Made by a program: the position numbers and the translations under genes
The notes under the pieces: generated by a model
Seen by the model: only the letters and a program-made list of their open reading frames with translations
Database searches by the model: none
What the model was told of the DNA's origin: nothing
Shown here: in pieces, positions 1 to 64,000 of the stretch
Layout of the letters: each line of letters starts with the position of its first letter
Position numbering within the stretch: the first letter of the stretch is position 1
DNA from: Candidatus Gastranaerophilales bacterium
GTDB taxonomy: Bacteria; Cyanobacteriota; Vampirovibrionia; Gastranaerophilales; Gastranaerophilaceae
Length of the DNA: 64,000 bases
Direction: 5' to 3'
Assembly (NCBI GenBank): GCA_944326555.1
Contig: CALVEK010000011.1
Span: forward strand, 1 to 64,000

Positions 1-174
1 AAAAAAGTTACTTTAGTTGGCTTCGGTACTTTTGAAGCTAGAAAAAGAGCTGCTAGAACTGGCCGCAATCCTCAAACTGGTAAAGAAATTAAAATTGCTG
101 CTAAAACAGTTCCTGCTTTTTCAGCTGGTAAAAAATTCAAAGAAGCTGTTGATTGCAAGGCTTGCAAAAAATAG
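1..174 (+). CDS. hup: HU-family DNA-binding protein, 5' truncated
   Basis: Only the last 57 residues are in the window; the start lies to the left. The HU beta-arm is clear: VGFGTF, then [17 protein letters not shown], then the [14 protein letters not shown] end. HU proteins are small dimeric nucleoid proteins that bend DNA. The family assignment is secure from the GRNPQTG arm. The tail DCKACKK is odd, because most HU proteins end shortly after the lysine-rich helix and lack cysteines. A strong terminator follows directly, so this is the last gene of its transcript. Confidence 0.95.
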
Positions 175-189
175 TTTTTTAACAGTTTT

Positions 190-226
190 AAAGACCGTCT
201 CTGTTTTAAGAGACGGTCTTTTTGTT
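190..226 (+). terminator. Rho-independent terminator of the HU gene
   Basis: A perfect 12-bp stem (AAAGACCGTCTC at 190-201 with GAGACGGTCTTT at 210-221) has an 8-base loop and a T-rich tail. It lies 15 bases after the HU stop codon. Confidence 0.92.
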
Positions 227-281
227 TATTTGGCAATATTTTCTCTTGAGTTGTTTTGTATTGTTGTGTGAAAGGTTTAAT

Positions 282-920
282 ATGGCAATTCAAAATTTAA
301 CAAGACAAATTCTTCCTAAAATATCTTTGAATAGTAAGGAGAATATTCGATTTATTAATGAAATGCCAGAAATGGTTCTGTCTAATGCAATTAGAAACGG
401 AAATAAAAAAATAGTTCATGTAGGAATGAATGAATCTGCTGCAGTTAGAATTTCTCAAAGAGGAGTAAACACTGTTTTTACTGATGCTCTTGCAGGTTGT
501 AACTCTGTTGGGGTTGTTGCAAAAACTGTTGACGGTAAACCTCTTATTGTTCTTTCTCATTACACTCCTTTACCTGAGTCTGTTAAAAGACAGTGCGCTG
601 CAATAGATAAGCAATTATCTGTTTATGACTCTTATATTGATAAATCAGTAAAGCCTGACGTTTTCTTTAATGTTAGAGGCTATACAGATTTAGATGGGGC
701 ATTAAAACCTCAGCCAAACAGTATTTTTGAGGCAGTAAGAAATGTATTGTCCAAGTTTTTTCCAAAAGGTGTGAATGAAACTGTTAATCCTTATCCCAAT
801 TCAAAACGTCCTGCATTCTTTTCTTCTGCTAATATTTTTCAGTTTGATTCTAAAAATTTAAACAAACTTAAGATGACTACAGTTGGTGAAAAAGAGCATT
901 TTATTGACTTAAATTATTAG
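282..920 (+). CDS. Uncharacterised protein with a possible CheD/CNF-type cysteine deamidase core
   Basis: A 212-residue cytoplasmic protein with no signal peptide or membrane segment. The start at 282 was chosen for AAAGG 8 bases upstream; the frame is open further left but without a ribosome site. I recognise no named family outright. The central segment, residues 67-98, has T67, a DALAGCN block with C73, and LSHYTPLP with H93. CheD chemoreceptor deamidases have a Thr six residues before the catalytic Cys, in a TxLGSC block, then a His followed by LP about 17 residues later. CNF-type toxin deamidases share this fold. The T-to-C spacing here is identical and the C-to-H spacing is 20. A deamidase role is inference; no chemotaxis genes are nearby. 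Its end overlaps the convergent outer-membrane factor gene by 4 bases. Confidence 0.6.
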   Translation: MAIQNLTRQILPKISLNSKENIRFINEMPEMVLSNAIRNGNKKIVHVGMNESAAVRISQRGVNTVFTDALAGCNSVGVVAKTVDGKPLIVLSHYTPLPESVKRQCAAIDKQLSVYDSYIDKSVKPDVFFNVRGYTDLDGALKPQPNSIFEAVRNVLSKFFPKGVNETVNPYPNSKRPAFFSSANIFQFDSKNLNKLKMTTVGEKEHFIDLNY

Positions 921-7536: not shown

Positions 7537-9801
7537 TTAATTTTTGGAATTTATTTTTGTTTTAAATAAAGTAATATTTTCTCTGATTTCTTCACACAGT
7601 GCTTGGTAATCTCTTTGATTGCCGTTCTTTTTTAACCATTCATTGAACATTTCTTCAAATTTTTCCCCTGTTATTATTGAGGCTTTGTTTTCTTTTTCTG
7701 CATCAAAGAAAGTATTTACATATTCTTCGATAAATGGTTTGACAAATTTAGATATATCGCTTGAAATCATCATTGCTTTATTTGAGTACTCAACAATGTC
7801 ATTTTTTATATCCGGTTTAAACAGTTCATAGGAGTAGCCATTTGGTGTGCAACCTATATATTTTGTTTTTGAGCCAAGACCCCATTTTGTTACTGATTTT
7901 AGTATGAGATTTGTACTGCTTTCCAAATCACCGCTTACACCATCGGTATGTCCGTCAAACATCTCTTCTTCTATACTGTAGCCACCATAGTTAACAACAA
8001 GTGTACTAAGTAGTGATTCTACAGTTAGTCGGCTGTTGTCAGACGGTTTCATAAGAGTTAAACCCGCAGCATCTCCTCGAGATTCATTTACTATAAAATC
8101 GACTTTTTGAATAGGTAATTTAGATTTATGGTATTCATTTGCAAAAACATTATTCATTATTATCTGGTTAATTGCATGACCTGCTTCGTGTGCGATTATT
8201 GACCTTTGTTCAAAATCTGACTTTTCGCTATCATTTTTTATGCCTATTAATGACTCCAATTTTGCTTCATTTATGTCTTTAGGTGTGATGTATTCAATTT
8301 TTCTTCCAAGGTATAGAGTTTTTCTATAGGCCTTTTTAATAATATCGGCAAGTTCTGCACCGGATAAACCTGATGATGTTTTTGCCAAATCATCTAACAA
8401 TTTTTTCTTTGTTTCTTCATCTTTAAAAGGTTTGTCTTTTGCATTTATTTCCAGTATTTCTCTACGTGCTTTTTCGGAAAATCTTGGGTCATCGATTTTA
8501 AATTCAAAATCAATACGGCCTTTTCTAAATGCTTCATCGAACAAGTCTCTTCTGTTTGTTGCAAGTATTGTTATTACTTTTATTTCATTTTCTTCTTTTG
8601 TTTGAACACCGTCCATTTCGCCAAGAAGAGCATTTAGGGTATGATTGCTTTCTGTATTGTTTGCACTTTCTCTTTTGGCTGCTACTGCATCAGCTTCATC
8701 TATAAATATTATTGCTGTTTTATTTTCATTTTTTGCTGCAAGATTTCTTGCCAATGCGTATAGTTCTCTTACGTGTTTTGCTCCTGCTCCTACGTATATT
8801 TCATTAAAGCTGCTGCCGTTAGCACTAATTAATGGTACTTTTGCCTCACCAGCAATAGCAGTTGCAAGGAGAGTCTTGCCTGTGCCGGGAGGTCCGTATA
8901 GTATTATTCCTGATGGTTTGTCTGCTATTTTTACTTTTGGGTTGTTTAGTATGTTTAAAAGTTCTTCTTTGATTTGTTTTTTTACGTTAAATAATCCGCC
9001 TACATCATCAAATGTTGTTTTTACATTTTCGTATACTCTAAAATTCGATATTTTTTCAGGGGTGGGTTTTTCTTCTTCTTTAGGTCTGATATTTTCAAAA
9101 TTTCCTTCAGGTTTATCAGCTTTATTATATTTTTTTTCATACTTTTTAGCTAATTCGGGGTATTTTTTTGCATATTTGTTTTTATCTGCAAGCAATTCTT
9201 GTGCAAATAAATTACAGCCGCTGTCTCGAAGTTCTTCTATAACATCTGTATTACTTCCGAAGAGATTGCTTAGTTTGTGATAATAAAACTCTCCTTGATG
9301 TTCGGGGGTAAGAGTTTTTACCATTTTTCTGAGTTCTTGTGCGATTTGCAATGTAGAATCGTAATCTACAGCTGTAAAAAATGGCGAGCCCATTGTTCTG
9401 ACTTTAGGTACAAGCAGTTGAAATCTTATGTCTTCATCTGCTTTTTTGAACATCTTAATGATATTTTGAGCCATGCTTATATCATTTGCATACAGCGATA
9501 AATTAAACGTCGATTCTTGATCTCCGTTTCGCATAAGTAAAAATTGATTTTTGACTTTTTCCGGTTGTTTTTCTATTGCATCAAAAAACTTTTTACTCTT
9601 TTTTTCAAAATCTTCTATTGTTTCATCTGTATCTATTGTAGTAATTTTTGCAAACTGTTTATAAAATTCGTTTGCTATTCTTTTGTCATCAAAATTGGAG
9701 CCAAATGTCGGTCTTGTTATATTAGTCGTCATTTGGGTAGGTTGATTTTGATAATATTTATTAGCTGTATAACTATAAGTGCGTATATTATTTATTTTCA
9801 T
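7537..9801 (-). CDS. FtsH-like AAA+ zinc metalloprotease without membrane anchor
   Basis: A 754-residue protein. The AAA+ core has Walker A GPPGTGKT (303-310), Walker B IIFIDEAD (364-371), ATNRRD sensor 1 and the arginine-finger region RKGRIDFEF. The M41 peptidase part has the zinc motif HEAGH (538-542) and a downstream GDLES (D625) as probable third ligand. This is the FtsH domain order, but no N-terminal transmembrane helix is visible. In its place are about 250 residues beginning with a Gln/Asn-rich stretch that ends in PTFGSNF, then helical, loosely ankyrin-like repeats (SPFFTAVDYDSTLQIAQEL). It is therefore probably soluble and selects substrates differently from housekeeping FtsH. A PTFGS motif near the N-terminus is shared in form with three other proteins of the window. 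Confidence 0.88.
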   Translation of the reverse strand: MKINNIRTYSYTANKYYQNQPTQMTTNITRPTFGSNFDDKRIANEFYKQFAKITTIDTDETIEDFEKKSKKFFDAIEKQPEKVKNQFLLMRNGDQESTFNLSLYANDISMAQNIIKMFKKADEDIRFQLLVPKVRTMGSPFFTAVDYDSTLQIAQELRKMVKTLTPEHQGEFYYHKLSNLFGSNTDVIEELRDSGCNLFAQELLADKNKYAKKYPELAKKYEKKYNKADKPEGNFENIRPKEEEKPTPEKISNFRVYENVKTTFDDVGGLFNVKKQIKEELLNILNNPKVKIADKPSGIILYGPPGTGKTLLATAIAGEAKVPLISANGSSFNEIYVGAGAKHVRELYALARNLAAKNENKTAIIFIDEADAVAAKRESANNTESNHTLNALLGEMDGVQTKEENEIKVITILATNRRDLFDEAFRKGRIDFEFKIDDPRFSEKARREILEINAKDKPFKDEETKKKLLDDLAKTSSGLSGAELADIIKKAYRKTLYLGRKIEYITPKDINEAKLESLIGIKNDSEKSDFEQRSIIAHEAGHAINQIIMNNVFANEYHKSKLPIQKVDFIVNESRGDAAGLTLMKPSDNSRLTVESLLSTLVVNYGGYSIEEEMFDGHTDGVSGDLESSTNLILKSVTKWGLGSKTKYIGCTPNGYSYELFKPDIKNDIVEYSNKAMMISSDISKFVKPFIEEYVNTFFDAEKENKASIITGEKFEEMFNEWLKKNGNQRDYQALCEEIRENITLFKTKINSKN

Positions 9802-12516: not shown

Positions 12517-12549
12517 AAAGCTCCGTTTTTTGACGGAGCTTTGTTTTTA
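12517..12549. terminator. Bidirectional terminator
   Basis: A perfect 10-bp stem (AAAGCTCCGT at 12517-12526 with ACGGAGCTTT at 12533-12542) and a 6-base loop, T-rich on both strands. It lies between the convergent alcohol dehydrogenase gene and the 957-residue gene. Confidence 0.9.
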
Positions 12550-15420
12550 TATATCTTTCATAATTATATCCGGAATCAAATTTTTCAAAATATCGTGTAT
12601 AATATTTTCCAGAAGAATATTTTTTGCATCTTGAGATTCTTTATTATCTGTTATAAATTCAACTGCACCCTTGTAGTTTCTTATATAGTCAATTACAAGA
12701 GATTCATCTGCTTGAAAAAGCAAGTACCTGCTAAGGCTTTTTTGTGATTCTAATGACATATCTTCATAATATTTGAATCCGTTTTCTCTGATGGTTTTTA
12801 TTTGTTTTTTCAATATGTTGTTATAGAAGTCTTCAGCTTTTATTGTACTTAGTTTTTCGGCGTATATTCTATATCTATTGTCTACTATTGATGTTTTTTC
12901 ATTATACTGTTCTTCAATATTATTCTCTTTTATATATTTAGCCGAATCATTTCTTGTGTTCTTAAATATTGTGCAATCGTTTGTTAACTCGTAGAGTGTT
13001 TTATTCATAGCAAATTCATTTGCTTTTGACAGCAATGGATATTCTCTTTCGAAGTCTTTTGATATTTCTGCCTTTATCTTGTTTAGCGATTCTTTTACTT
13101 CTTTTATTTTTTGAGGATTTATGTCAATTTTTGCTTGTCCTATTTCTAAACCTACAAATGCGCTAATTACTTCTTCTCGCATTTCCGGATGGTTTAAAAT
13201 ATAGTCTGTTAATGTTTCTCTGAATTCGCTGCTATAGAATTTTGTATCTTTTGTTGATAGGGCTTTGAATGCCTTTTTCAGAGATTTCATTGAAGAAAAA
13301 TCTACATTATATTTGGCTGTTAATATGTGTTTTGCAGAGCTTTTGGCAGCGCGTTCTTCATTTGTTTTTACATTGTTGTCAGACATTACATGTTTTTCGT
13401 ATGAGCATATAAAGTAGTCTATTGCTATGTGTTCTAAAATTGCTTTTTTTACTTCTTCTGAATCTGTCTGATTTAATAGTTTTGCGTATCCGTTGTAACT
13501 TTGAATAAATTTTATGCTTTCATTTCTAAATGTTGTACTTTTATCCAAGCTGTTTTTGATTATTTGCAGGTTCATCATAATATTATCCGGCAGAGCGTAG
13601 TTGTCTGTGCCGTTAATTGCCATATCTTCTAATTTAGGCAGTATATTGTTTTTGAGGAGTTCAAGAGCCTCTTTTTGATTCATTGGCTTTGCTAATTTTT
13701 TCATTTGTTGATTGAATAATGTTTTTTGTGTGATTATTTCTTTCATCAATTTTGGATTTTGTACCAATATATCGTAAGAATCTCCTCTTTCGTTTCTGAA
13801 AATTGAAGGATTGCCTGTTTTTTCATACAAGAAGTTGTTTATTATAAATTCATTGGTTTTTGATATAAGTCTATGTTGATTATCAAATTCGTGGTTTATT
13901 TTTTCTATTTTGGGGATATATTCTTGTTTTATTTTTTCAAGCCCATCTTCATCTACATTGAATAATTCTTTTGCATCGGGTCGGTTTAATTTAACGACAT
14001 CTAATTTTGTTTTGTAGTCAACTTTTTGCATAGCGAAGTCTAAAAATTCTCTGGCAAAAATATCAGGAGAATATTTTAGTAAATCCATTTCTATTTGTTT
14101 AAATAACATTAGTATTTCTTTTTTTGAATAATTTTCTATAGGAGTTAGATTCTGTTTTTGCTCTATTTTTGTATCTTCTTGTTGCTTTGGCTTGGGGGCG
14201 AGCTTTTGCATTTCCAGTCTTTCTCGTCTCTTTAGCTTTGCTTTTTCAAGTATTTTTGATTTGAGATCTAGTGCTTGGTTTATTAAAAACTCTAATTTCT
14301 CAGGATGTTCTTTGTCGTGGTATGCTACATCAAAATCTGAAATAGTTTCTTGTATGGCTTTTGAATATATTGTTTTAAAATTAGGATCTTTATTCCAAAA
14401 TTCGAGCATAATTTCTCTCGATTTTTCGGCAAAAGTGGGAAAATCCGTATTAAATTCATCATCATTCATTTTATCGGCAAATATTTGACTGAGTCTTTCA
14501 GAAAAGCCTATTTTTGCCGCAGCAATTGTCATAATTTGTCCTTGGAATTTTGAAAATATTGAGTCGGCAAATTCTTTGCCGTTCATCATTTTTTTGACTT
14601 GTTCTTCTCTCTCTATTTGATTAAGACCTGCCCACCAGCTTTTTGATGATATACTGAGCTTTTCTCTTGTTTCCTCTGATATTACTCTTGGGGTCTCAGG
14701 CTGTTTTCTTACAGGTGGAATGTATTCTTTATCGTTTCTTGTTGCTAAAAATGAATTATAGTAAGACAAATTTGGGTATTTTATTCCAAGAGAACGTATT
14801 GTTGAATTTGTAAAGTATTGACCGTTCTTTACTCCAAGTTCTCTTTTTATTGCTTCTGTCGCATCTTTATCAAAATCTTTATTTATTTCTTCTATTGTTT
14901 TTCCTTCAAGATAGACCTTTTTTAGCAAATATAATGTTATGTCTTTTTCTTTAGAATCTTTAAATATAGGTGTATTGCTTGTTTGTTTATCCCATTTTAA
15001 AAGTAATAGAATTCCTGATGATGGCTTTGTTTCATCCACTGTCTTCAAATTTGCAAATAATTCTTCATTTGGGTAGATTTCTTTTACTTCTTTTATATCG
15101 TCAGCAAGTTTTAAGTATTCGAATGCCAATCTTTGTAATTGAGCAGGTGGCATGTGATGTCTCGTTTCAAAGTCTTCTTCCAGATACTTCCTTACTGTAT
15201 CAGGCATGTTTTTTTTGTTAAATTCTTGTGCATAGAAATTTTCCGGAGTTCTGTTTAATCTTTCACCAAAACTTATTTTGTTTATGTTGTAGTCTCGGTA
15301 AGCGTAAATGTTGTGTGTTTGTATTGATTTGGAAATGTTTTTGACTGTTTTGGATTTTAAGTTATTATTTGTATTTGTTTTTTTATAATGATTATTTTGT
15401 GGCAACAGATTAATTTTCAT
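12547..15420 (-). CDS. Large uncharacterised helical protein with an internal duplication
   Basis: A 957-residue lysine- and glutamate-rich protein without signal peptide or membrane segment. The Asn/Lys-rich N-terminus ends in KISFGERLNR (residues 48-57), like three other proteins here. Residues about 247-282 (SEETREKLSISSKSWWAGL) resemble the NUMOD3 type of DNA-binding motif found in homing endonucleases, and a basic linker follows (KAKLKRRERLEMQK). The C-terminal half is duplicated: LISKTNEFIINNFLYEKTG at 518-536 matches LLSKANEFAMNKTLYELTN at 797-815, and similarity continues from 591 and from 868 (NILPKLEDM and NILKKQIKT) to the end. No catalytic motif is recognised. It is monocistronic. 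Function unknown; DNA binding is only a hint. Confidence 0.75.
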   Translation of the reverse strand: MKINLLPQNNHYKKTNTNNNLKSKTVKNISKSIQTHNIYAYRDYNINKISFGERLNRTPENFYAQEFNKKNMPDTVRKYLEEDFETRHHMPPAQLQRLAFEYLKLADDIKEVKEIYPNEELFANLKTVDETKPSSGILLLLKWDKQTSNTPIFKDSKEKDITLYLLKKVYLEGKTIEEINKDFDKDATEAIKRELGVKNGQYFTNSTIRSLGIKYPNLSYYNSFLATRNDKEYIPPVRKQPETPRVISEETREKLSISSKSWWAGLNQIEREEQVKKMMNGKEFADSIFSKFQGQIMTIAAAKIGFSERLSQIFADKMNDDEFNTDFPTFAEKSREIMLEFWNKDPNFKTIYSKAIQETISDFDVAYHDKEHPEKLEFLINQALDLKSKILEKAKLKRRERLEMQKLAPKPKQQEDTKIEQKQNLTPIENYSKKEILMLFKQIEMDLLKYSPDIFAREFLDFAMQKVDYKTKLDVVKLNRPDAKELFNVDEDGLEKIKQEYIPKIEKINHEFDNQHRLISKTNEFIINNFLYEKTGNPSIFRNERGDSYDILVQNPKLMKEIITQKTLFNQQMKKLAKPMNQKEALELLKNNILPKLEDMAINGTDNYALPDNIMMNLQIIKNSLDKSTTFRNESIKFIQSYNGYAKLLNQTDSEEVKKAILEHIAIDYFICSYEKHVMSDNNVKTNEERAAKSSAKHILTAKYNVDFSSMKSLKKAFKALSTKDTKFYSSEFRETLTDYILNHPEMREEVISAFVGLEIGQAKIDINPQKIKEVKESLNKIKAEISKDFEREYPLLSKANEFAMNKTLYELTNDCTIFKNTRNDSAKYIKENNIEEQYNEKTSIVDNRYRIYAEKLSTIKAEDFYNNILKKQIKTIRENGFKYYEDMSLESQKSLSRYLLFQADESLVIDYIRNYKGAVEFITDNKESQDAKNILLENIIHDILKNLIPDIIMKDI

Positions 15421-56046: not shown

Positions 56047-56898
56047 TGCTTCCAGTGCGGCGATTTTCATGATTTCAGGTTTTGCTTTTTGACCTGTCCA
56101 TATTTCGAATGCTTTTGCACCTTGATGCACAAACATGTCAATACCTGTGATTGTTTTGTATCCGTTTTTTTGTGCAAGTTTTAACAGCTCTGTTTTAAGA
56201 GGGTTGTACACAATATCATAGACAGTTGCTGTGATTGTCTCTGTCTTTGGCAAGGTTATGATTATGTCTTCTTCTATAGGGCTTGTACCCATTGCTTTGC
56301 CTCGCATGCCTATGGGTGTGGAATTTACCAGCATTTTTGAGTCTGACAGGTCTTTGAGACTCTGCATTTGTTTTAAGTTAAATTTTGTTGATTTAAAGTT
56401 CTCTCTCAAAAAATTAACCATTTTGCTTGCATTTATTATATTTCTTGCATAAAAGTCGATTTCTGATACACCTATTTGACAAAAGGCTATAGCGGCTGCT
56501 CTTGCGGCTCCGCCTGTTCCAAGTATTGAAACTTTTTGTCCTTTTATTTCTTTTTGTGTCTCTTCAGGAATAGCTTTTTGAAAACCGTAGATATCTGTAT
56601 TGTATCCATACAAAGATTTATCAGGCATGATTTTTACTGTATTTGCGCATCCTGCCAAATCCGCAAGTTTGTCAAACTCGTCAAGAAATAGTGTTATCGG
56701 GACTTTTAAAGGGATTGTTACATTAAAACCACCGTAGCCCTGTGATTTTAATTGTTTTACTCTGGTAACAAGGTCTTCACTTTCTGTATCAAGTAATTCG
56801 TAACTGCAATCAAGTCCCAGTTCTTTAAACATTGCGTTATGCATTACAGCTGATAAAGACTGGGTTAGTGGGTGTCCTATAACCGCGAATTTATTCAT
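56035..56898 (-). CDS. aroE: Shikimate dehydrogenase
   Basis: A 287-residue AroE. The substrate domain has GHPLTQSLSAVMHNAMFKEL and GFNVTIPLKVPI with the catalytic lysine, and NTDIYGFQKA; the NADP motif is LGTGGAARAAAIAF. It reduces 3-dehydroshikimate in aromatic amino-acid synthesis. The start overlaps the end of topA by eight bases, so the two are co-transcribed. Confidence 0.96.
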   Translation of the reverse strand: MNKFAVIGHPLTQSLSAVMHNAMFKELGLDCSYELLDTESEDLVTRVKQLKSQGYGGFNVTIPLKVPITLFLDEFDKLADLAGCANTVKIMPDKSLYGYNTDIYGFQKAIPEETQKEIKGQKVSILGTGGAARAAAIAFCQIGVSEIDFYARNIINASKMVNFLRENFKSTKFNLKQMQSLKDLSDSKMLVNSTPIGMRGKAMGTSPIEEDIIITLPKTETITATVYDIVYNPLKTELLKLAQKNGYKTITGIDMFVHQGAKAFEIWTGQKAKPEIMKIAALEALAE

Positions 56899-59194
56899 CC
56901 TTTTTATCTTCCTCTATTAATTTTGAGAACCCGCATTTTGTATTTATGCAAACTAATTTAGATTCTTTTTTTGTTATTTTCTTTGTAAGTATTGAACCGC
57001 ATTCGGGACATTTTTCGTTAACAGGTTCATTCCAAGAAACAAAGTCGCAATCCGGATATTTGTTACATCCATAGAAAATTTTTCCGTATTTTGATTTTCG
57101 TTGGATAATTTCTCCTTCCTCGCATTTGGGGCATTTTACTCCGGTTGTTATGACCATTCTTTTTCTGTTTTTGCACTCATCGTTAGTGCATTGCAGATAT
57201 TTGCCGTAAGGTCCAACTTTCACAACCATGTCGGAACCGCATTTTTCGCATTTCTCTTCGCTTTTTTCCTCTACAGGTGCTGCTGTACCGTCTTTGTTTA
57301 AAGGAAGCATTGTTTTGCACTCAGGGTATCCTGAACAGCCAAGGAATTGTGTGCCAAAACGGCTTGTTCTGACAATCATTTTTTTGCCGCAATTCGGACA
57401 TATTACATCAGATTCAATAAGAACTTTTGGCATGTTTTTCTTTGCTGCATCAACAGTATCCGTAAAAGGAGTGTAAAAATCTCTTAGTACGTCTGTCCAC
57501 ACCGCTTTTTCTTCTGCAATTTCATCAAGTTTTGTTTCCATTTGCGCAGTGAATTTGTAATTCATTATATCCGTAAAGTATTTTACGAGTTCTCTGCACA
57601 GAGTTCTTCCAAGGATTGTCGGTGCTAATGCTTTGTCTTGTTTTTCCACGTAACCTTTTTGCTGTATTTTTGAAATAATCGGGGCATAAGTTGACGGACG
57701 TCCTATGCCGTGTTCTTCAAGTGCTTTAACAAGCGATGCTTCCGTATATCTTGGAGGAGGTTGTGTAAAATGTTGTTTCGGCTCAATCTTTTTCAAGCTG
57801 ACAGTGTCTCCTTGTTCAAGATCCGGGATTTTGCTTGAATCAGGTTCATCGTCGTTTTCGTTATAGACTTTTAAAAATCCGTCAAATGTAACTTTGCTTG
57901 TACCTGTTTTAAACAAATAGTCGCCTGCTGTTATATCTACAGAAGTGTTTTTTACCTTTGCGTTGGCCATTTGAGATGCAATAAATCTTGACCAAATCAG
58001 TTTGTATAATCTGTATTGCTCTGATGTGAGATATTGTTTAATACTTTCCGGTGTTCTTTCAACATATGAGGGGCGAATTGCTTCGTGAGCATCCTGAACA
58101 TTTTTTCCGCCTTTATGATATATGTTGGGAGTCTGTGGATAATATTCTTTTCCATAGGCTTCTGTTACAAAATCCTTTGCGGCAGCTTGCGCATCGTCAG
58201 AAATTCTGACCGAGTCTGTTCTCATATATGTAATTAAACCGACAGGACCGTCTGAGCCTATGTCTATACCTTCATATAGTTTTTGGGCTATTTGCATAGT
58301 TTTTGATACGCCATAGCCTAGTTTTGAGCTTGCTTCTCTTTGTAAGGTTGATGTTATAAAAGGAGCTGCAGGTTTTCTTTGAGTATCTCTGTATGCGACT
58401 TTTGATACCTCATACTTTAGCCCTTTTTGAGTTAGGTCTTCTACAATTTTGTCAGCTTCTGATTGGTTTTTTATATCAATCTTTTTATCTTTATATTTTG
58501 TAAGTTCTGCACTAAACGGTAGTTTCCCTTTCAAAAGATTTGCTGTTATCGTCCAATATTCTACAGGTTTGAACGCATCTATTTCATCTTCTCTTTCGCA
58601 AATCATTTTAAGAGCTACACTTTGTACTCTTCCTGCCGAGAGCCTGTAGTTTCTCATTTTTTCCCAAAGAACGGGGCTAATCTTATAACCAACGAGTCTG
58701 TCCAAAATCTGTCTTGTTTGTTGAGCCTTTACTCTTTCCATGTCTATTGCTCTTGGATGCTCAACTGCACTTTTTATTGCTTTAGGTGTAATTTCGTTAA
58801 ATTCGATACGGTTAATTTTTTCATCAGGGACATCCAAAACCTGTCTGACATGCCAAGCAATAGCTTCTCCCTCTCTATCAGGGTCGGATGCCAGATAGAT
58901 TTTGTCTGATTTTTTTGCCAATTCATTTAATTTTTTTACAACAACTTTCTTCTCAGGAATCACGATGAATGATGGTTCAAAGTTATTGGCTACATCAAAT
59001 CCCAGAACCTTTGGCGGAAAGTCTCTGATGTGTCCGTAGCTTGCTTCAATCTGGTATGAATCTCCAAGAATCTTCTTTATTGTCTTGGATTTTGCAGGAG
59101 ACTCAACTATTACCAGAGCTGTTTCTTTTTTTGTTTTTGTCGTTTTTTTTGCCGGTTTATTCTCTTCGCCGGCGGTCTCTTTTTTTCTTACCAT
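56891..59194 (-). CDS. topA: DNA topoisomerase I
   Basis: A 767-residue type IA topoisomerase. The TOPRIM domain has VIVESPAKSKTIKKIL and SDPDREGEAIAWH; the active-site tyrosine is in GLITYMRTDSVR; RLSAGRVQSVAL is present. The C-terminus carries four zinc-ribbon motifs (CPNCGKKM, CEKCGSDM, CPKCEEGE and CPECGSIL, each with a second Cys pair). A basic Lys-rich N-terminal extension of about 25 residues precedes the domain. It relaxes negative supercoils. It is followed by aroE in an overlapping operon. Confidence 0.96.
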   Translation of the reverse strand: MVRKKETAGEENKPAKKTTKTKKETALVIVESPAKSKTIKKILGDSYQIEASYGHIRDFPPKVLGFDVANNFEPSFIVIPEKKVVVKKLNELAKKSDKIYLASDPDREGEAIAWHVRQVLDVPDEKINRIEFNEITPKAIKSAVEHPRAIDMERVKAQQTRQILDRLVGYKISPVLWEKMRNYRLSAGRVQSVALKMICEREDEIDAFKPVEYWTITANLLKGKLPFSAELTKYKDKKIDIKNQSEADKIVEDLTQKGLKYEVSKVAYRDTQRKPAAPFITSTLQREASSKLGYGVSKTMQIAQKLYEGIDIGSDGPVGLITYMRTDSVRISDDAQAAAKDFVTEAYGKEYYPQTPNIYHKGGKNVQDAHEAIRPSYVERTPESIKQYLTSEQYRLYKLIWSRFIASQMANAKVKNTSVDITAGDYLFKTGTSKVTFDGFLKVYNENDDEPDSSKIPDLEQGDTVSLKKIEPKQHFTQPPPRYTEASLVKALEEHGIGRPSTYAPIISKIQQKGYVEKQDKALAPTILGRTLCRELVKYFTDIMNYKFTAQMETKLDEIAEEKAVWTDVLRDFYTPFTDTVDAAKKNMPKVLIESDVICPNCGKKMIVRTSRFGTQFLGCSGYPECKTMLPLNKDGTAAPVEEKSEEKCEKCGSDMVVKVGPYGKYLQCTNDECKNRKRMVITTGVKCPKCEEGEIIQRKSKYGKIFYGCNKYPDCDFVSWNEPVNEKCPECGSILTKKITKKESKLVCINTKCGFSKLIEEDKKDE

Positions 59195-61197: not shown

Positions 61198-61851
61198 ATG
61201 GACAAGATTAATAACGTTTCAAAAATAAGAAAATTTATTGCAACAGAGCTAATAAACACTGGCCTTTTTGATGTTTATTTGTTGTATTGGCTGGAGATGG
61301 AGCATTCTTTTTTGGATGCATCTGAAAAGGTGAGAAAAAATCTTTTTTCGAGATTCCTTGTTGATTATCTGACTATACAGAATAATGGTTTGATTCCGAA
61401 AAACAATGAGCTTTTTGATAAGTTTGTTGGTTTTTATAAAAATGCATCAAAGTTTCAGCAGAAAGAAATAATTATAAAAAATATTTTCCGATATTCTGTA
61501 TATTACTTAAAGATTATATTTGCTGATATTTCTGATACAGATATAAGAGTTAGGGTTAAAAAGATAAATGCCTATAATGCAAAGGATGCATATCCTTTTT
61601 TGATGGAAGTTTTTGAGGATTTTGAATTTGCTCATATAAATAGAGCCATGCTTCTTGAAATTTTGGATACTGTTATTGGTTTTATTGAAGAGAGAAATTC
61701 TAAAAAACCGTCTCAAATTGCATTATCGTTTGCAGGTTTGAGTTCTGAGATAAATAAAATGCTGGTGTTAAAGGATTATACTCCAAGGTTTGTTGTTGAT
61801 GAACAGGATTTGGCAGATGGTAACACGATAAACACTTTGGTGAAGGCTTAA
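61198..61851 (+). CDS. DUF262/GmrSD-like helical domain lacking both flanking domains
   Basis: A 217-residue helical protein. FSRFLVDYLTIQNNGLIPKNNELFDKFVGFYKN (landmarks FSRFLVDYLTIQN and NELFDKFVGFY), RYSVYYLKIIF, NAKDAYPFLMEVFEDFE and LLEILDTVIGFIEER follow the pattern of the middle helical part of DUF262/GmrSD-type proteins, between the ParB-like nuclease-related N-domain and the C-terminal DUF1524 HNH domain. Neither flanking domain is present in this frame. Thus it may be a remnant or a stand-alone derivative. The start at 61198 has no clear ribosome site. The two HNH genes next to it are on the other strand. The family match is by eye. Confidence 0.55.
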   Translation: MDKINNVSKIRKFIATELINTGLFDVYLLYWLEMEHSFLDASEKVRKNLFSRFLVDYLTIQNNGLIPKNNELFDKFVGFYKNASKFQQKEIIIKNIFRYSVYYLKIIFADISDTDIRVRVKKINAYNAKDAYPFLMEVFEDFEFAHINRAMLLEILDTVIGFIEERNSKKPSQIALSFAGLSSEINKMLVLKDYTPRFVVDEQDLADGNTINTLVKA

Positions 61852-61856
61852 TTTTT

Positions 61857-62891
61857 CTACCTTCTTAATGTTGAAATATCTAAGTTATAATCGCATACAT
61901 TTGACAGTGTGTTTTTAATTTCCTGAGGGTAATTGTCAAAGTTTAAAAGGCGTTTTCCATTAATTTCTGATATAACTTTGTTCATATTCTTCTGTATGTT
62001 TTTTAGCATTTCGGGGTGAGATTCAAACCACTCTTTGTATGGAATGCTCCCTCTATGGCTGTTGCATTTTTCGCACATTACAAGAAGGTTGGAAAAATTG
62101 TCGTGCCCACTCTTATTGGCAGGAATTATGTGATCCAGTGTTGGTAAAGACGGAGACATTAGCCTTTGTCCAATTTCTCTATTACCTCTTTGTGCATATT
62201 TAATCATGAATGCATCGACATCATCTTTTGATGTAGGTAATTGTTGGAGCTTTTTTAGGATTGTATCTATTTCCTGTTTTTCTTCGCAGACTTTTTTTAA
62301 TGTTTCAAATTCTTTTATTATTCTGCTTCTTTTTTGTCTTGTTTCCTTTGGTTCAACAAATATAATTTCTCTTACTTTTGCAAGAGTGTTATCAAGTTCT
62401 TTTTGTGATTTAGGGCTTAGTTCTAACTTCATGGATGCAACATCATTGATTATTTTTAGTTGTTTTATTTCCAAACGGCCAAGATGGTAGTAGTATCTTT
62501 TTTTTAGCAGTGTGTTCAAGTCAGCATTCGGGTCTTTATTTGCTGCTCTTTTAAGCAAATTATAAACAGTTTTTTCTGTAGAGCGCATGTATGGAACGTA
62601 AGGTTTCAGTTTCTTCAAGACAGGAGCCGCAGGACCTTGAAAATCTTTTGATTTGAATTTTGCATATTCTTTTTCGTTTATCATTTTTTTTCCACAGCAT
62701 GCACAAGGCAGGTTTTGAATGTTCCTCAAGTTAAATGCATCTTCTTTGTCTACACGTGCAGAACCAAATGATATTGTATCTTTTTGTAATTTGTAAGATA
62801 AGGTGCTGTATACAATGTTTTCTTGTATACAGTTTTTATTTTTACTTATTGGGTGGTACACAAAAGTTGTTATTTTTAATGAGCCTGTCAT
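61857..62891 (-). CDS. HNH-family nuclease-like protein with N-terminal ISFGS motif
   Basis: A 344-residue protein. The HNH core lies at 252-280: LDHIIPANKSGHDNFSNLL then CEKCNSHRG, with D253/H254, N268 and zinc cysteines C273 and C276. The other zinc pair is probably CACC (C63, C66) near the N-terminus, so about 185 mostly helical residues lie between the two halves of the zinc site, where ordinary HNH proteins have about 20-30. The polar N-terminus contains TISFGSARVD (39-48). It is convergent with the DUF262-like gene (5-base gap) and follows its paralogue by 35 bases. A DNA-cleaving role is inferred. Confidence 0.75.
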   Translation of the reverse strand: MTGSLKITTFVYHPISKNKNCIQENIVYSTLSYKLQKDTISFGSARVDKEDAFNLRNIQNLPCACCGKKMINEKEYAKFKSKDFQGPAAPVLKKLKPYVPYMRSTEKTVYNLLKRAANKDPNADLNTLLKKRYYYHLGRLEIKQLKIINDVASMKLELSPKSQKELDNTLAKVREIIFVEPKETRQKRSRIIKEFETLKKVCEEKQEIDTILKKLQQLPTSKDDVDAFMIKYAQRGNREIGQRLMSPSLPTLDHIIPANKSGHDNFSNLLVMCEKCNSHRGSIPYKEWFESHPEMLKNIQKNMNKVISEINGKRLLNFDNYPQEIKNTLSNVCDYNLDISTLRR

Positions 62892-62926
62892 GTTTTGTAT
62901 AACGTATATGAAAATATTTTTTGCTA

Positions 62927-64000
62927 TTATTTGTTTTTTTCCATATATTTTCTATTTTTTTCTGCTTCTATTAAGTTTAGTTTTGAGTAATCTAAAATAA
63001 TTTTTCCTGCAGATTCTTTTTCAACAGCTTTTTTTATTTGGTGAGGATATTTATCATAGCCTTGCAATTGTCCATTATTTATATACTTGATAACAGTATC
63101 GAAATATTTCTGTGCGTTTTGAGGCATATCTTTGTGCAGCTTAATAAATTCATCGTATGGTATTTGAGCTCTTTCTGAATTACAGTTGCTGCAAAGAACT
63201 ATGTAATTTTTTATGTCATTTTCTCCTGGATCGTTTATTCTTTTTTGTGGTTTAACGTGCTCTATTGTTGATGCAGAACCTATCAATAGTCTTTTTGCAA
63301 TTTCATTTGGGTTGTTATCTCTATATTTTACGATAAATGCACTTGCGTTGTTTTTTGAACTTGGCAGTTGATTTATTTTATCTTTAATTTCTTGATAAAG
63401 TTCTTTTTCGGGTATTAATTTTTCCGCATTGTCAAACGTTTGTATAATTCTTGTTCTTTTATTTTTTACAGACGCGTCTTCTTTTATCAAAATGTTATAT
63501 GCATTTACTAGCATACTATGTACTTTTCGTTTTGATTTAGGGTTCAATTTTTCTGCAATCTGGTCTGCTTCCCACAATATTTTACCTTGTTCAAGTTCTA
63601 TTTTTTTTAGATTAACCGTATATATTGACGGGTTGTTAAATATTTCAGTGAAAGATTGTTCAGGGTATCTTTGTGCGTTTTCTTTCAGAATTTGAAAGAC
63701 CTCTTTTTCTGATTTATTCATTCTCTGTTCAAATTTTGACATAGCGTCAACCATATATTTTGAGTTATGATAAACTCTTTTGGTCATTAGTTCGATGTCT
63801 TTTATATTTACTCTTACATCTTTGGGTAGTGTTTGTAATTTCTCTCTTACGGCTTCTCTGTCAAGAATATTGCTCAGAGTTTGATTTTCATATAATTTGC
63901 TTAGTAATTTACAAAATTTGTAGGCTTCATATTGTGAATCGGTTAACTTTTTTTTGTTGAATACTCCGCTGGCTTCAATTATTTTTATTGCTTCATTTGC
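62927..64000 (-). CDS. HNH-like protein, paralogue of the preceding gene, 5' truncated by the window edge
   Basis: The reading frame is open from 64000 to the stop at 62927, so the visible 357 residues lack the true start; an ATG at 63787 is internal. The C-terminal domain aligns with the 61857 protein: KRTRIIQTFDNAEKLIP with KRSRIIKEFETLKKVC, INQLPSSKNNASAFIVKYR with LQQLPTSKDDVDAFMIKYA, and TIEHVKPQ, NYIVLCSNCNSERAQIPYDEF with the HNH core. Here the DH pair is EH, and the final His of CNxHR is Glu (CNSERA), so catalysis is less certain. An N-terminal CxxC may lie outside the window. Tandem duplication is likely. Confidence 0.7.
   Translation of the reverse strand, partial: ANEAIKIIEASGVFNKKKLTDSQYEAYKFCKLLSKLYENQTLSNILDREAVREKLQTLPKDVRVNIKDIELMTKRVYHNSKYMVDAMSKFEQRMNKSEKEVFQILKENAQRYPEQSFTEIFNNPSIYTVNLKKIELEQGKILWEADQIAEKLNPKSKRKVHSMLVNAYNILIKEDASVKNKRTRIIQTFDNAEKLIPEKELYQEIKDKINQLPSSKNNASAFIVKYRDNNPNEIAKRLLIGSASTIEHVKPQKRINDPGENDIKNYIVLCSNCNSERAQIPYDEFIKLHKDMPQNAQKYFDTVIKYINNGQLQGYDKYPHQIKKAVEKESAGKIILDYSKLNLIEAEKNRKYMEKNK

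What the first reader, a model, noticed from the sequence alone, without database searches (positions are those of the whole stretch)
61198..64000. Cluster of nuclease-related genes at the right edge: DUF262-like fragment plus two HNH paralogues
A GmrSD/DUF262-type helical domain without its nuclease domains lies convergent to tandem HNH proteins. It could be the end of a defence island, or a decayed type IV restriction system with unrelated nucleases beside it. The window edge hides the rest.
Basis: partly seen in the sequence, partly recalled or inferred. Interest (0 to 1): 0.5.

Follow-up and report, generated by a model that had tools for sequence, protein, structure and literature searches.

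The report
Orphan restriction-enzyme helix, leader-tagged HNH nucleases
At the edge of this gut-bacterium window sits a lone, well-preserved helical piece of an anti-phage enzyme that has become an ordinary core gene, beside a fast-changing row of likely DNA-cutting enzymes whose proteins start with a disordered tag shared by many unrelated proteins of related bacteria.

Summary
Named relatives are mostly Candidatus Gastranaerophilales. The 217-aa protein (61198-61851, +) is the free-standing helical half of a DUF262-helical-DUF1524 enzyme (SspE, DndI, GmrSD): its model aligns with SspE over 187 residues (Z 13.8) from the domain linker onward. It shows no sign of decay: intact in 23 of 23 genus genomes, omega about 0.03 in the two closest helical-only pairs, housekeeping neighbours. 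DUF262 was not found in this genome. The row holds three tandem HNH genes, not two; the edge cuts the second. They encode a Cas9-like, probably zinc-binding HNH fold interrupted by about 160 helical residues, sit with 1-4 copies in a fixed slot beside a BadF-type gene, and diverge far faster than their neighbours. A defence island is not supported. The unexpected part is the HNH N-terminus: a disordered, acid-poor leader typically ending in D-T-V-S-F-K. Sites of that DNA pattern put the motif at residues 25-55 in 42 of 44 long reading frames, in 12 sequence families; outside the order, 0 of 4 (window 25-60). I read it as an uncharacterised N-terminal sorting signal; receptor and destination are unknown, and looser scans support it only weakly.

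The parts
61198..61851 (+). Free-standing helical half of a DUF262-helical-DUF1524 (SspE/DndI/GmrSD) type enzyme, 217 aa
   Evidence: intact in 23/23 genus genomes; AlphaFold pLDDT 83.6; SspE 6jiv_A Z 13.8, rmsd 3.8, 187 aligned; homologues L110-L112 carry DUF262 upstream of the same region
61857..62891 (-). HNH-A, 344-aa HNH endonuclease
   Evidence: Pfam HNH E 9.3e-7, above cut-off; H254, N268, N277 invariant in 23 of 23 aligned members; model pLDDT 83.5
62760..62891 (-). N-terminal leader of HNH-A (residues 1-44), with DTISFG at 62763-62780
   Evidence: pLDDT under 50 for residues 1-46; motif site also; leader 21-30% identical to two homologues against 65-71% for the rest
62631..62753 (-). 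First part of the HNH fold (residues 47-87) with the zinc-knuckle-like C63-x-x-C66
   Evidence: C63 and C66 invariant in 23 of 23; aligned to a Cas9 HNH domain from residue 47
62160..62630 (-). Helical insert (about residues 88-244) between the first Cys pair and the D-H strand; borders inferred
   Evidence: DSSP helices; alignment of model 47..334 with about 115 contiguous residues of AnaCas9 covers only 109 residues
61890..62159 (-). Second part of the HNH fold (residues 245-334): LDH253-254...N268...C273xxC276-N277
62927..64000 (-). HNH-B, 439 aa, cut by the window edge (full gene contig C11:62927-64246); its DTVSFK lies outside the window at contig 64124-64141
59444..61138 (+). TPR protein upstream of the helical gene, conserved context
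   Evidence: Pfam TPR; next to the helical gene in 19 of 23 genus genomes within 1.5 kb, 78-82% identical
56891..59194 (-). DNA topoisomerase I, housekeeping context
   Evidence: Pfam Topoisom_bac E 7.6e-132; conserved in the block

Best explanation
Two unrelated things meet here. (1) The 217-aa protein is a domesticated remnant of an anti-phage enzyme. An ancestor of the DUF262-helical-DUF1524 type lost its nuclease domain, then its DUF262 GTPase domain. The helical half was kept as a small, mostly acidic core protein that most likely acts as a protein-binding scaffold, not as a nuclease or DNA sensor. (2) The HNH genes encode metal-dependent DNA nucleases (probably nickases) whose HNH fold is interrupted by a helical domain that may read or grip DNA. 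They multiply and diverge at one fixed chromosomal slot. Most carry a disordered, acid-poor leader ending in D-T-V-S-F-K or a variant of it. The motif is shared with many unrelated proteins, and the leader most likely sends the protein to a particular place in, or out of, the cell. Shown: architecture, conservation, synteny, fold matches, the shared motif and its fixed position. Inferred: nuclease activity, zinc binding, scaffold role, order of domain loss, and that the leader is a sorting signal.
For: Helical protein: VIA-align puts 6jiv_A (SspE, Z 13.8), 9jfl_B (DndI, Z 10.8), 7drs_A and 7drr_A (SspE, Z 10.3) in the first four places; the next row is a designed repeat protein at Z 7.7. The alignment begins at SspE residue 327, inside the reported linker T325-T331 between its two domains (PMC9646914, passages). 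Homologues form a series: frames of 614-738 aa with DGQQR (L118-L120, one cut by the contig edge), 408-426 aa with DGQQR (L110-L112), 407-454 aa without it (L113, L116), and helical-only, 186-264 aa from the first start codon (30 of 38 loci). A tree of 33 rows needs 2 label changes, shuffled mean 7.6. Close pairs give omega 0.027 and 0.033. HNH: H254, N268, N277, C63, C66, C276 invariant in 23 of 23; AnaCas9 HNH Z 8.5 and AceCas9 Z 8.2 are the two best rows; HNH pI 8.4-9.7 in 23 rows, helical pI 4.4-6.9 in 30 rows. Slot: 16 of 23 genus genomes have an HNH gene convergent to the helical gene within 1.5 kb; identity to the window's genes is 93-97% for BadF, 78-82% for TPR, 28-64% for HNH. Leader: 48 sites of the DTVSFK pattern in 26 of 36 genomes against 9 for the pattern read backwards; of 47 distinct sites, 44 in frames of 100 aa or more, 42 at residues 25-55, 12 families; acidic residues 2.2% in these leaders against 14% after the motif.
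Against: No activity is shown for any of these proteins. Pfam HNH matches only 12 of 23 aligned members at E 0.001. The tool warns that mostly helical models often reach Z 13-14 by common arrangement, so the SspE match leans on the sequence link as well; HNH Z values of 8.2-8.5 are modest. Foldseek alone gave no match with E under 0.001 for either model. A motif-weight scan of 417 sampled non-HNH genes showed little N-terminal excess (13 of 417 against 19 of 1162 internal stretches at score 8). A relaxed scan gave 12 of 417 against 13 of 1619 (P 0.0018) in this genome but 1 of 193 against 3 of 631 in loci L105-L117, and its criteria were set after seeing these data; some of the 12 look like chance. 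So the number of leader proteins per genome is uncertain. The control outside the order rests on 4 frames. dS is saturated for most pairs; a third helical-only pair (dS 1.21) gives omega 0.154.
Confidence: 0.6

Rival explanations
1. The cluster is the end of a defence island or a decaying type IV restriction system.
For: The helical protein is homologous to defence enzymes (PADLOC Orf5 E 8.2e-14); HNH genes are adjacent.
Against: Metabolic and housekeeping neighbours on both sides with no clear defence match among 10 tested; block conserved across most of the genus; intact in 23 of 23; omega about 0.03 in close pairs; short form found in other gene rows elsewhere; HNH-A only brushes PADLOC models (PtuB E 0.0069).
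Confidence: 0.07
2. The helical protein and the HNH proteins form one split system: an SspE-like helical module working in trans with, or restraining, an HNH nuclease.
For: In SspE the HNH motif lies in the C-terminal domain, whose start is the part that the helical protein matches (PMC9646914); 16 of 23 genus genomes have the two genes side by side; one protein is acidic or near neutral, the other basic.
Against: Convergent, so not one transcript; no HNH member found in the flanks held for L105-L117; G029 has the helical-only gene but no HNH match at E 0.001; 7 of 22 named genus loci show no HNH gene in the flank held, one of them cut by its contig end.
Confidence: 0.12
3. The HNH genes are selfish or phage-derived endonucleases that proliferate at a permissive site.
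For: 1-4 copies in the slot and rapid divergence; the best PHROG match covers part of the insert as well (phrog_2214 E 3.1e-11, residues 155-310).
Against: Family present in 52 of 59 relatives, in several families of the order; no match of HNH-A in 50,697 phage records by tblastn at E 1e-5; one weak locus in viral contigs; leader motif shared with unrelated proteins; the closest HNH pair has omega 0.086.
Confidence: 0.2
4. The leader is an export signal of a type III-like apparatus and the HNH proteins are secreted nucleases.
For: Rich in Asn, Ser and Pro, acid-poor; FHIPEP export gate in 58 of 59 relatives and a FliF-FlhA gene row in this genome with a VSFKG-bearing protein directly upstream.
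Against: Some leader-bearing proteins look intracellular: an AAA-M41 protein and an HD-domain protein, a starch-synthase-like and an amylase-family protein. FHIPEP is almost universal here, so co-occurrence does not discriminate.
Confidence: 0.2

Closest known systems
SspE (SspABCD-SspE phosphorothioate-sensing defence), DndI
   Same: Helical region directly after the DUF262 domain; Z 13.8 and 10.8; the alignment starts at the SspE inter-domain linker
   Different: No DUF262 GTPase domain, no DUF1524 nuclease domain, core-genome location
GmrSD family of type IV restriction enzymes (PF03235 plus DUF1524)
   Same: [quoted passage not shown] this protein corresponds to that linker
   Different: The linker alone is kept as a gene
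PADLOC Orf5 family
   Same: Best profile match, E 8.2e-14, positions 206-358 of 543; longer relative L110 matches at 5.8e-79
   Different: Only the middle of the profile is present
HNH domain of type II-C Cas9, IscB
   Same: D-H...N...CxxC-N core; AnaCas9 Z 8.5; NCBIfam IscB E 1e-7 over residues 252-306
   Different: IscB score 31.4 bits against a cut-off of 175; HNH fold interrupted by a helical insert; N-terminal leader
Phage HNH endonucleases (phrog_2214 and others)
   Same: HNH core, and in phrog_2214 perhaps part of the insert
   Different: No match of HNH-A to 50,697 phage records by tblastn

Membership tests
SspE/DndI/GmrSD (DUF262-helical-DUF1524) | N-terminal DUF262 domain with DGQQR | tested here: not met
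   No PF03235 in the protein or found in G000; present in homologues L110-L112
SspE/DndI/GmrSD (DUF262-helical-DUF1524) | Helical region after the DUF262 domain | tested here: met
SspE/DndI/GmrSD (DUF262-helical-DUF1524) | C-terminal DUF1524 HNH nuclease domain | tested here: not met
   The protein ends at residue 217 after the helices; no Pfam match to DUF1524. DUF1524 was not searched genome-wide.
HNH endonuclease (PF01844) | Profile match above cut-off | tested here: met
   A 29.3 bits, B 26.6 bits, cut-off 21.4; but only 12 of 23 aligned members match at E 0.001
HNH endonuclease (PF01844) | Catalytic His and Asn conserved | tested here: met
   H254, N268, N277 invariant in 23 of 23
HNH endonuclease (PF01844) | DNA cutting | not testable with these tools
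   Needs an assay
RNA-guided IscB/Cas9 | Full-length family profile | tested here: not met
   IscB 31.4 bits against cut-off 175; Cas9d 20 against 375
Defence island | Neighbouring defence genes | tested here: not met
   10 neighbours: 7 without PADLOC match at E 0.01; 3 with matches (topoisomerase to DpdF 1.4e-13, TPR protein to TPR, PDC-M71B and PrimPol models, shikimate dehydrogenase 0.0016) read as shared domains or noise, given their Pfam identities
Type III export substrate | Export dependent on the N-terminal segment | not testable with these tools
   Only co-occurrence with FHIPEP seen

The most novel reading that the evidence does not exclude
Gastranaerophilaceae use an undescribed N-terminal sorting signal: a fast-drifting, disordered, Asn/Ser/Thr/Pro-rich and acid-poor leader of about 30-45 residues closed by a short D-T-[VI]-S-F-[KGS] motif. 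It resembles organelle transit peptides in design (recalled comparison) and sends nucleases, an HD-domain protein, an AAA-M41 protein, glycogen enzymes and unknown proteins to a common destination, possibly a subcellular compartment.
Probability: 0.4. Interest if true: 0.8.

Novelty: new variant of a known kind. Interest (0 to 1): 0.5.

Why it matters
It gives a case of a restriction enzyme stripped to its helical core and kept by the cell, so the function of that core can be studied alone. The HNH leader points to an unrecognised targeting system in a gut lineage related to cyanobacteria, testable with one fusion protein.

Tried and rejected
A single split system of helical protein plus HNH was considered and set aside, because a genome with the helical-only gene has no HNH match (G029) and the linkage is limited to part of one genus.

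A retained DNA-binding role for the helical protein was my first idea, from the R404/R408 helix of SspE (PMC9646914). A pI of 4.4-6.9 in 30 rows speaks against it; the window's own protein has pI 6.8 and net charge 0, and I did not map those residues.

Viral contigs gave one weak match and phage records none for HNH-A. Solved-structure searches by sequence gave none for the helical profile and only weak rows for the HNH profile, among them Cas9 and an HNH endonuclease at E 0.16-0.57. The only Pfam family listed for the helical protein (RTEL1 ARCH, E 0.011) is under its cut-off.

The motif-weight scan and the looser genome pattern (339 sites against 200 for the pattern read backwards; the list is cut short and I did not evaluate its loci) were too unspecific to count leader proteins. 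The wider class GAYWCNRTNWSNTTYRRN gave 12 sites in this genome against 5. Of these, searches show the motif near the start of five frames over 100 aa (residues 34-39, L143, L145, L148, L150, L151), once internally (L146, residue 491), and once near the start of a 124-aa frame that may be antisense (L152).

Paper searches for the motif letters found none. Searches for Gastranaerophilales with HNH, lineage names with secretion and effector terms, Gastranaerophilales with signal, leader and transit peptide terms (5,795 papers, 20 listed, none of the listed naming Gastranaerophilales), and Melainabacteria with type III secretion and flagella showed no description of such a leader in their listings. 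The library is partial; only passages of PMC9646914, PMC11662687 and PMC4619093 were seen.

My eye suggested a kinase-like, an acetyltransferase-like and a radical-SAM-like protein among the leader families; Pfam did not support these at E 0.01, so I do not claim them.
Full report
The window is the first 64,000 bases of contig C11 (78,348 bases) of a 2.08 Mb assembly. Of the 22 named loci whose helical gene is 65-77% identical, 19 are labelled Candidatus Gastranaerophilales, two uncultured bacterium and one uncultured Clostridia. Genus, family and order below are the kinship labels of the genome tool.

Observation. Beyond the window the HNH row continues with the rest of B and a third paralogue C, then a BadF-type ATPase and other ordinary genes. 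A further relative is a 676-aa tandem protein on contig C24.

The helical protein. Alone it matches no Pfam family above cut-off. PADLOC Orf5 matches at E 8.2e-14, only from profile position 206 on. Of 59 genomes searched, 31 have a relative at E 0.01 or better, including all 23 of the genus, without stop codons in those 23. PF03235 (DUF262) is absent at E 0.001 from 19 of 23 genus genomes, this one included; 3 of the 4 others have hits over the cut-off.

Among 38 named loci, 30 encode the helical part only, 186-264 aa from the first start codon (L083-L109, L114, L115, L117). Three encode 408-426 aa with DGQQR (L110-L112). Two, L113 and L116, encode longer proteins without DGQQR; L116 reads DGLQR, and the L113 locus still gives a PF03235 hit. 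Three from Neomarinimicrobiota/Marinimicrobia encode 614 aa or more, one cut by the contig edge. In the 426-aa relative DUF262 covers residues 17-224 and the window protein aligns to what follows. The tree of 33 rows separates the forms with 2 label changes; one origin of the helical-only form is not ruled out, and long branches (L117, L116, L113, L112) make details unsure.

The AlphaFold model (pLDDT 83.6) aligns best with SspE: 6jiv_A Z 13.8, rmsd 3.8, 187 aligned, from SspE residue 327. DndI follows at Z 10.8; the first row outside the family is at 7.7. The tool warns that helical models can reach Z 13-14 without kinship; here the same family leads by sequence too. Foldseek alone had ranked SspE at E 3.9 and found nothing under 0.001. 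SspE's linker between its domains is reported as residues 325-331 (PMC9646914, passages). Published GmrSD proteins often have an alpha-helical linker of 200-400 residues between the two domains (PMC4619093, passage).

Selection and setting. Two close helical-only pairs give omega 0.027 (dS 0.21) and 0.033 (dS 1.11), a third 0.154 (dS 1.21). 54 of 435 pairs passed the dS filter; many are distant pairs with values near 0.6 that I regard as saturated. In the genus the gene follows the TPR gene in 19 of 23 genomes and is met by a convergent HNH gene in 16 of 23, within 1.5 kb; some contigs end too early to tell. In loci outside these 23 it sits in different gene rows: after a lepB-like gene (L105, L106), next to sepF-like and ispH/rpsA-like genes (L107-L109), near hisH/tilS-like genes (L114, L115), before an obgE-like gene (L117), and, in its longer form, before an ftsH-like gene (L113, L116) (names by reading the sequences; the genus of L105-L109 was not determined). 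This is the behaviour of a core gene, not of a defence-island gene. Of 10 neighbours run against PADLOC, 3 gave matches, which I read as common domains or noise.

The HNH proteins. Relatives at E 0.001 occur in 52 of 59 genomes, usually several per genome. In the slot beside the helical gene there are 1-4 copies (L090 is cut by its contig end). Their identity to the window's genes is 28-64%, while BadF stays at 93-97%. In 23 aligned members C63, C66, H254, N268, C276 and N277 are invariant and C273 nearly so. The model (pLDDT 83.5) has pLDDT under 50 over residues 1-46 and is mostly helical over about 88-248. VIA-align pairs model residues 47..334 with a stretch of about 115 residues of AnaCas9 (109 aligned, Z 8.5) and of AceCas9 (111 aligned, Z 8.2), and with many other Cas9 HNH domains. 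I infer a zinc-type HNH fold split by a helical insert of about 160 residues. That AnaCas9 HNH binds zinc through two Cys pairs, and the pairing of D253/H254/N277 with Cas9 residues, is recalled, not looked up.

The leader. In the 45 HNH-family frames first collected, 36 held a match to [VILA][STNC]F[KGTSQRCA] in residues 13-110; most begin with a variable stretch that ends in a motif such as DTVSFK. Members from other genera and families can lack it (for example L047, L048, L054), and one copy in L088 keeps only SFG. The leader drifts faster than the body (21-66% against 65-91% identity in five pairs).

To ask whether the motif is particular to HNH proteins, I searched DNA for D-T-V-[S and codon neighbours]-F-K. 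36 genomes, 23 of them of this genus, gave 48 sites against 9 for the pattern read backwards. Two sites have the same surroundings and were counted once, leaving 47. Of these 44 lie in frames of at least 100 aa, and 42 of the 44 have the motif at residues 25-55. The two exceptions read DTVTFK and DTVRFK and lie inside other proteins. The 42 fall into 12 groups by BLAST linkage; 21 are HNH proteins by profile. In these leaders D+E make 2.2% against 14.0% after the motif, Asn 13.3 against 8.1, Ser 10.1 against 5.8.

In 98 genomes spread over the phylum, frames of at least 100 aa outside the order had the motif at residues 25-60 in 0 of 4 (one, L241, at residue 15). In other genera of the same family it was 7 of 8; one of the 7 (L252) may be an antisense frame, and the eighth (L244) has no usual start codon before the motif. 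Species are not independent samples, and the choice of DTVSFK came from these proteins.

Looser motif scans are weaker. The motif-weight scan shows little excess. The relaxed scan shows 12 of 417 against 13 of 1619 in the sampled part of this genome and no excess in loci L105-L117. Other proteins of this genome with a similar N-terminus include the AAA-M41 protein at window 7537-9801 and a 957-aa protein at 12547-15420 without a Pfam match, a starch-synthase-like protein (L201) and an alpha-amylase-family protein (L131).

How it works, in my reading. The nuclease core is probably active. The leader is a flexible address tag read through its terminal S-F-K motif, because composition and motif are kept while sequence is not. 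Destination and receptor are unknown. Export by a type III-like gate (FHIPEP in 58 of 59 relatives) is possible, but the enzyme types argue for a place inside the cell. The helical protein is a separate story and probably a scaffold.

Novelty. The domain types are known. The helical-only core gene, the split HNH family and above all the shared leader were not seen described in the listings and passages of the searches made, which cover a partial library.

Noticed in passing
window 7537-9801 (-): AAA ATPase with an M41 peptidase domain, FtsH-like, with an acid-poor N-terminus ending PTFGS.
   Followed up: partly
window 12547-15420 (-): 957-aa protein without a Pfam match at E 0.01 and with a leader ending KISFGE.
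   Followed up: partly
L199:9160-11262 (G000:C23), L200:7715-9829 (C18), L201:5587-7050 (C5): Three FHIPEP-family genes in this genome, one in a FliF-FlhA-FliI-like row, one matching only the C-terminal half of the profile. FHIPEP is in 58 of 59 relatives, flagellin in 47 of 59; 11 of the 12 without flagellin keep FHIPEP.
   Followed up: partly
L199:4378-5559: A protein with PVSFKG near its start lies directly upstream of the FliF-like gene; no Pfam match at E 0.01.
   Followed up: no
L040:2164-4194 (G000:C24): 676-aa protein that looks like two HNH-family units; the first lacks the D-H of the second.
   Followed up: no
L201:7777-10161 and L131:3663-7451: Starch-synthase-like and alpha-amylase-family proteins with leader-like N-termini, a possible link of the leader to glycogen metabolism.
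   Followed up: partly
L116:6768-7991 and L113: DUF262-helical proteins without a DGQQR motif (L116 reads DGLQR), encoded directly before an ftsH-like gene.
   Followed up: no
L088:11699-13216: One HNH copy in the slot has lost the DTV part of the motif (SFG is kept) and the first Cys of the second pair; perhaps a degenerating copy.
   Followed up: no
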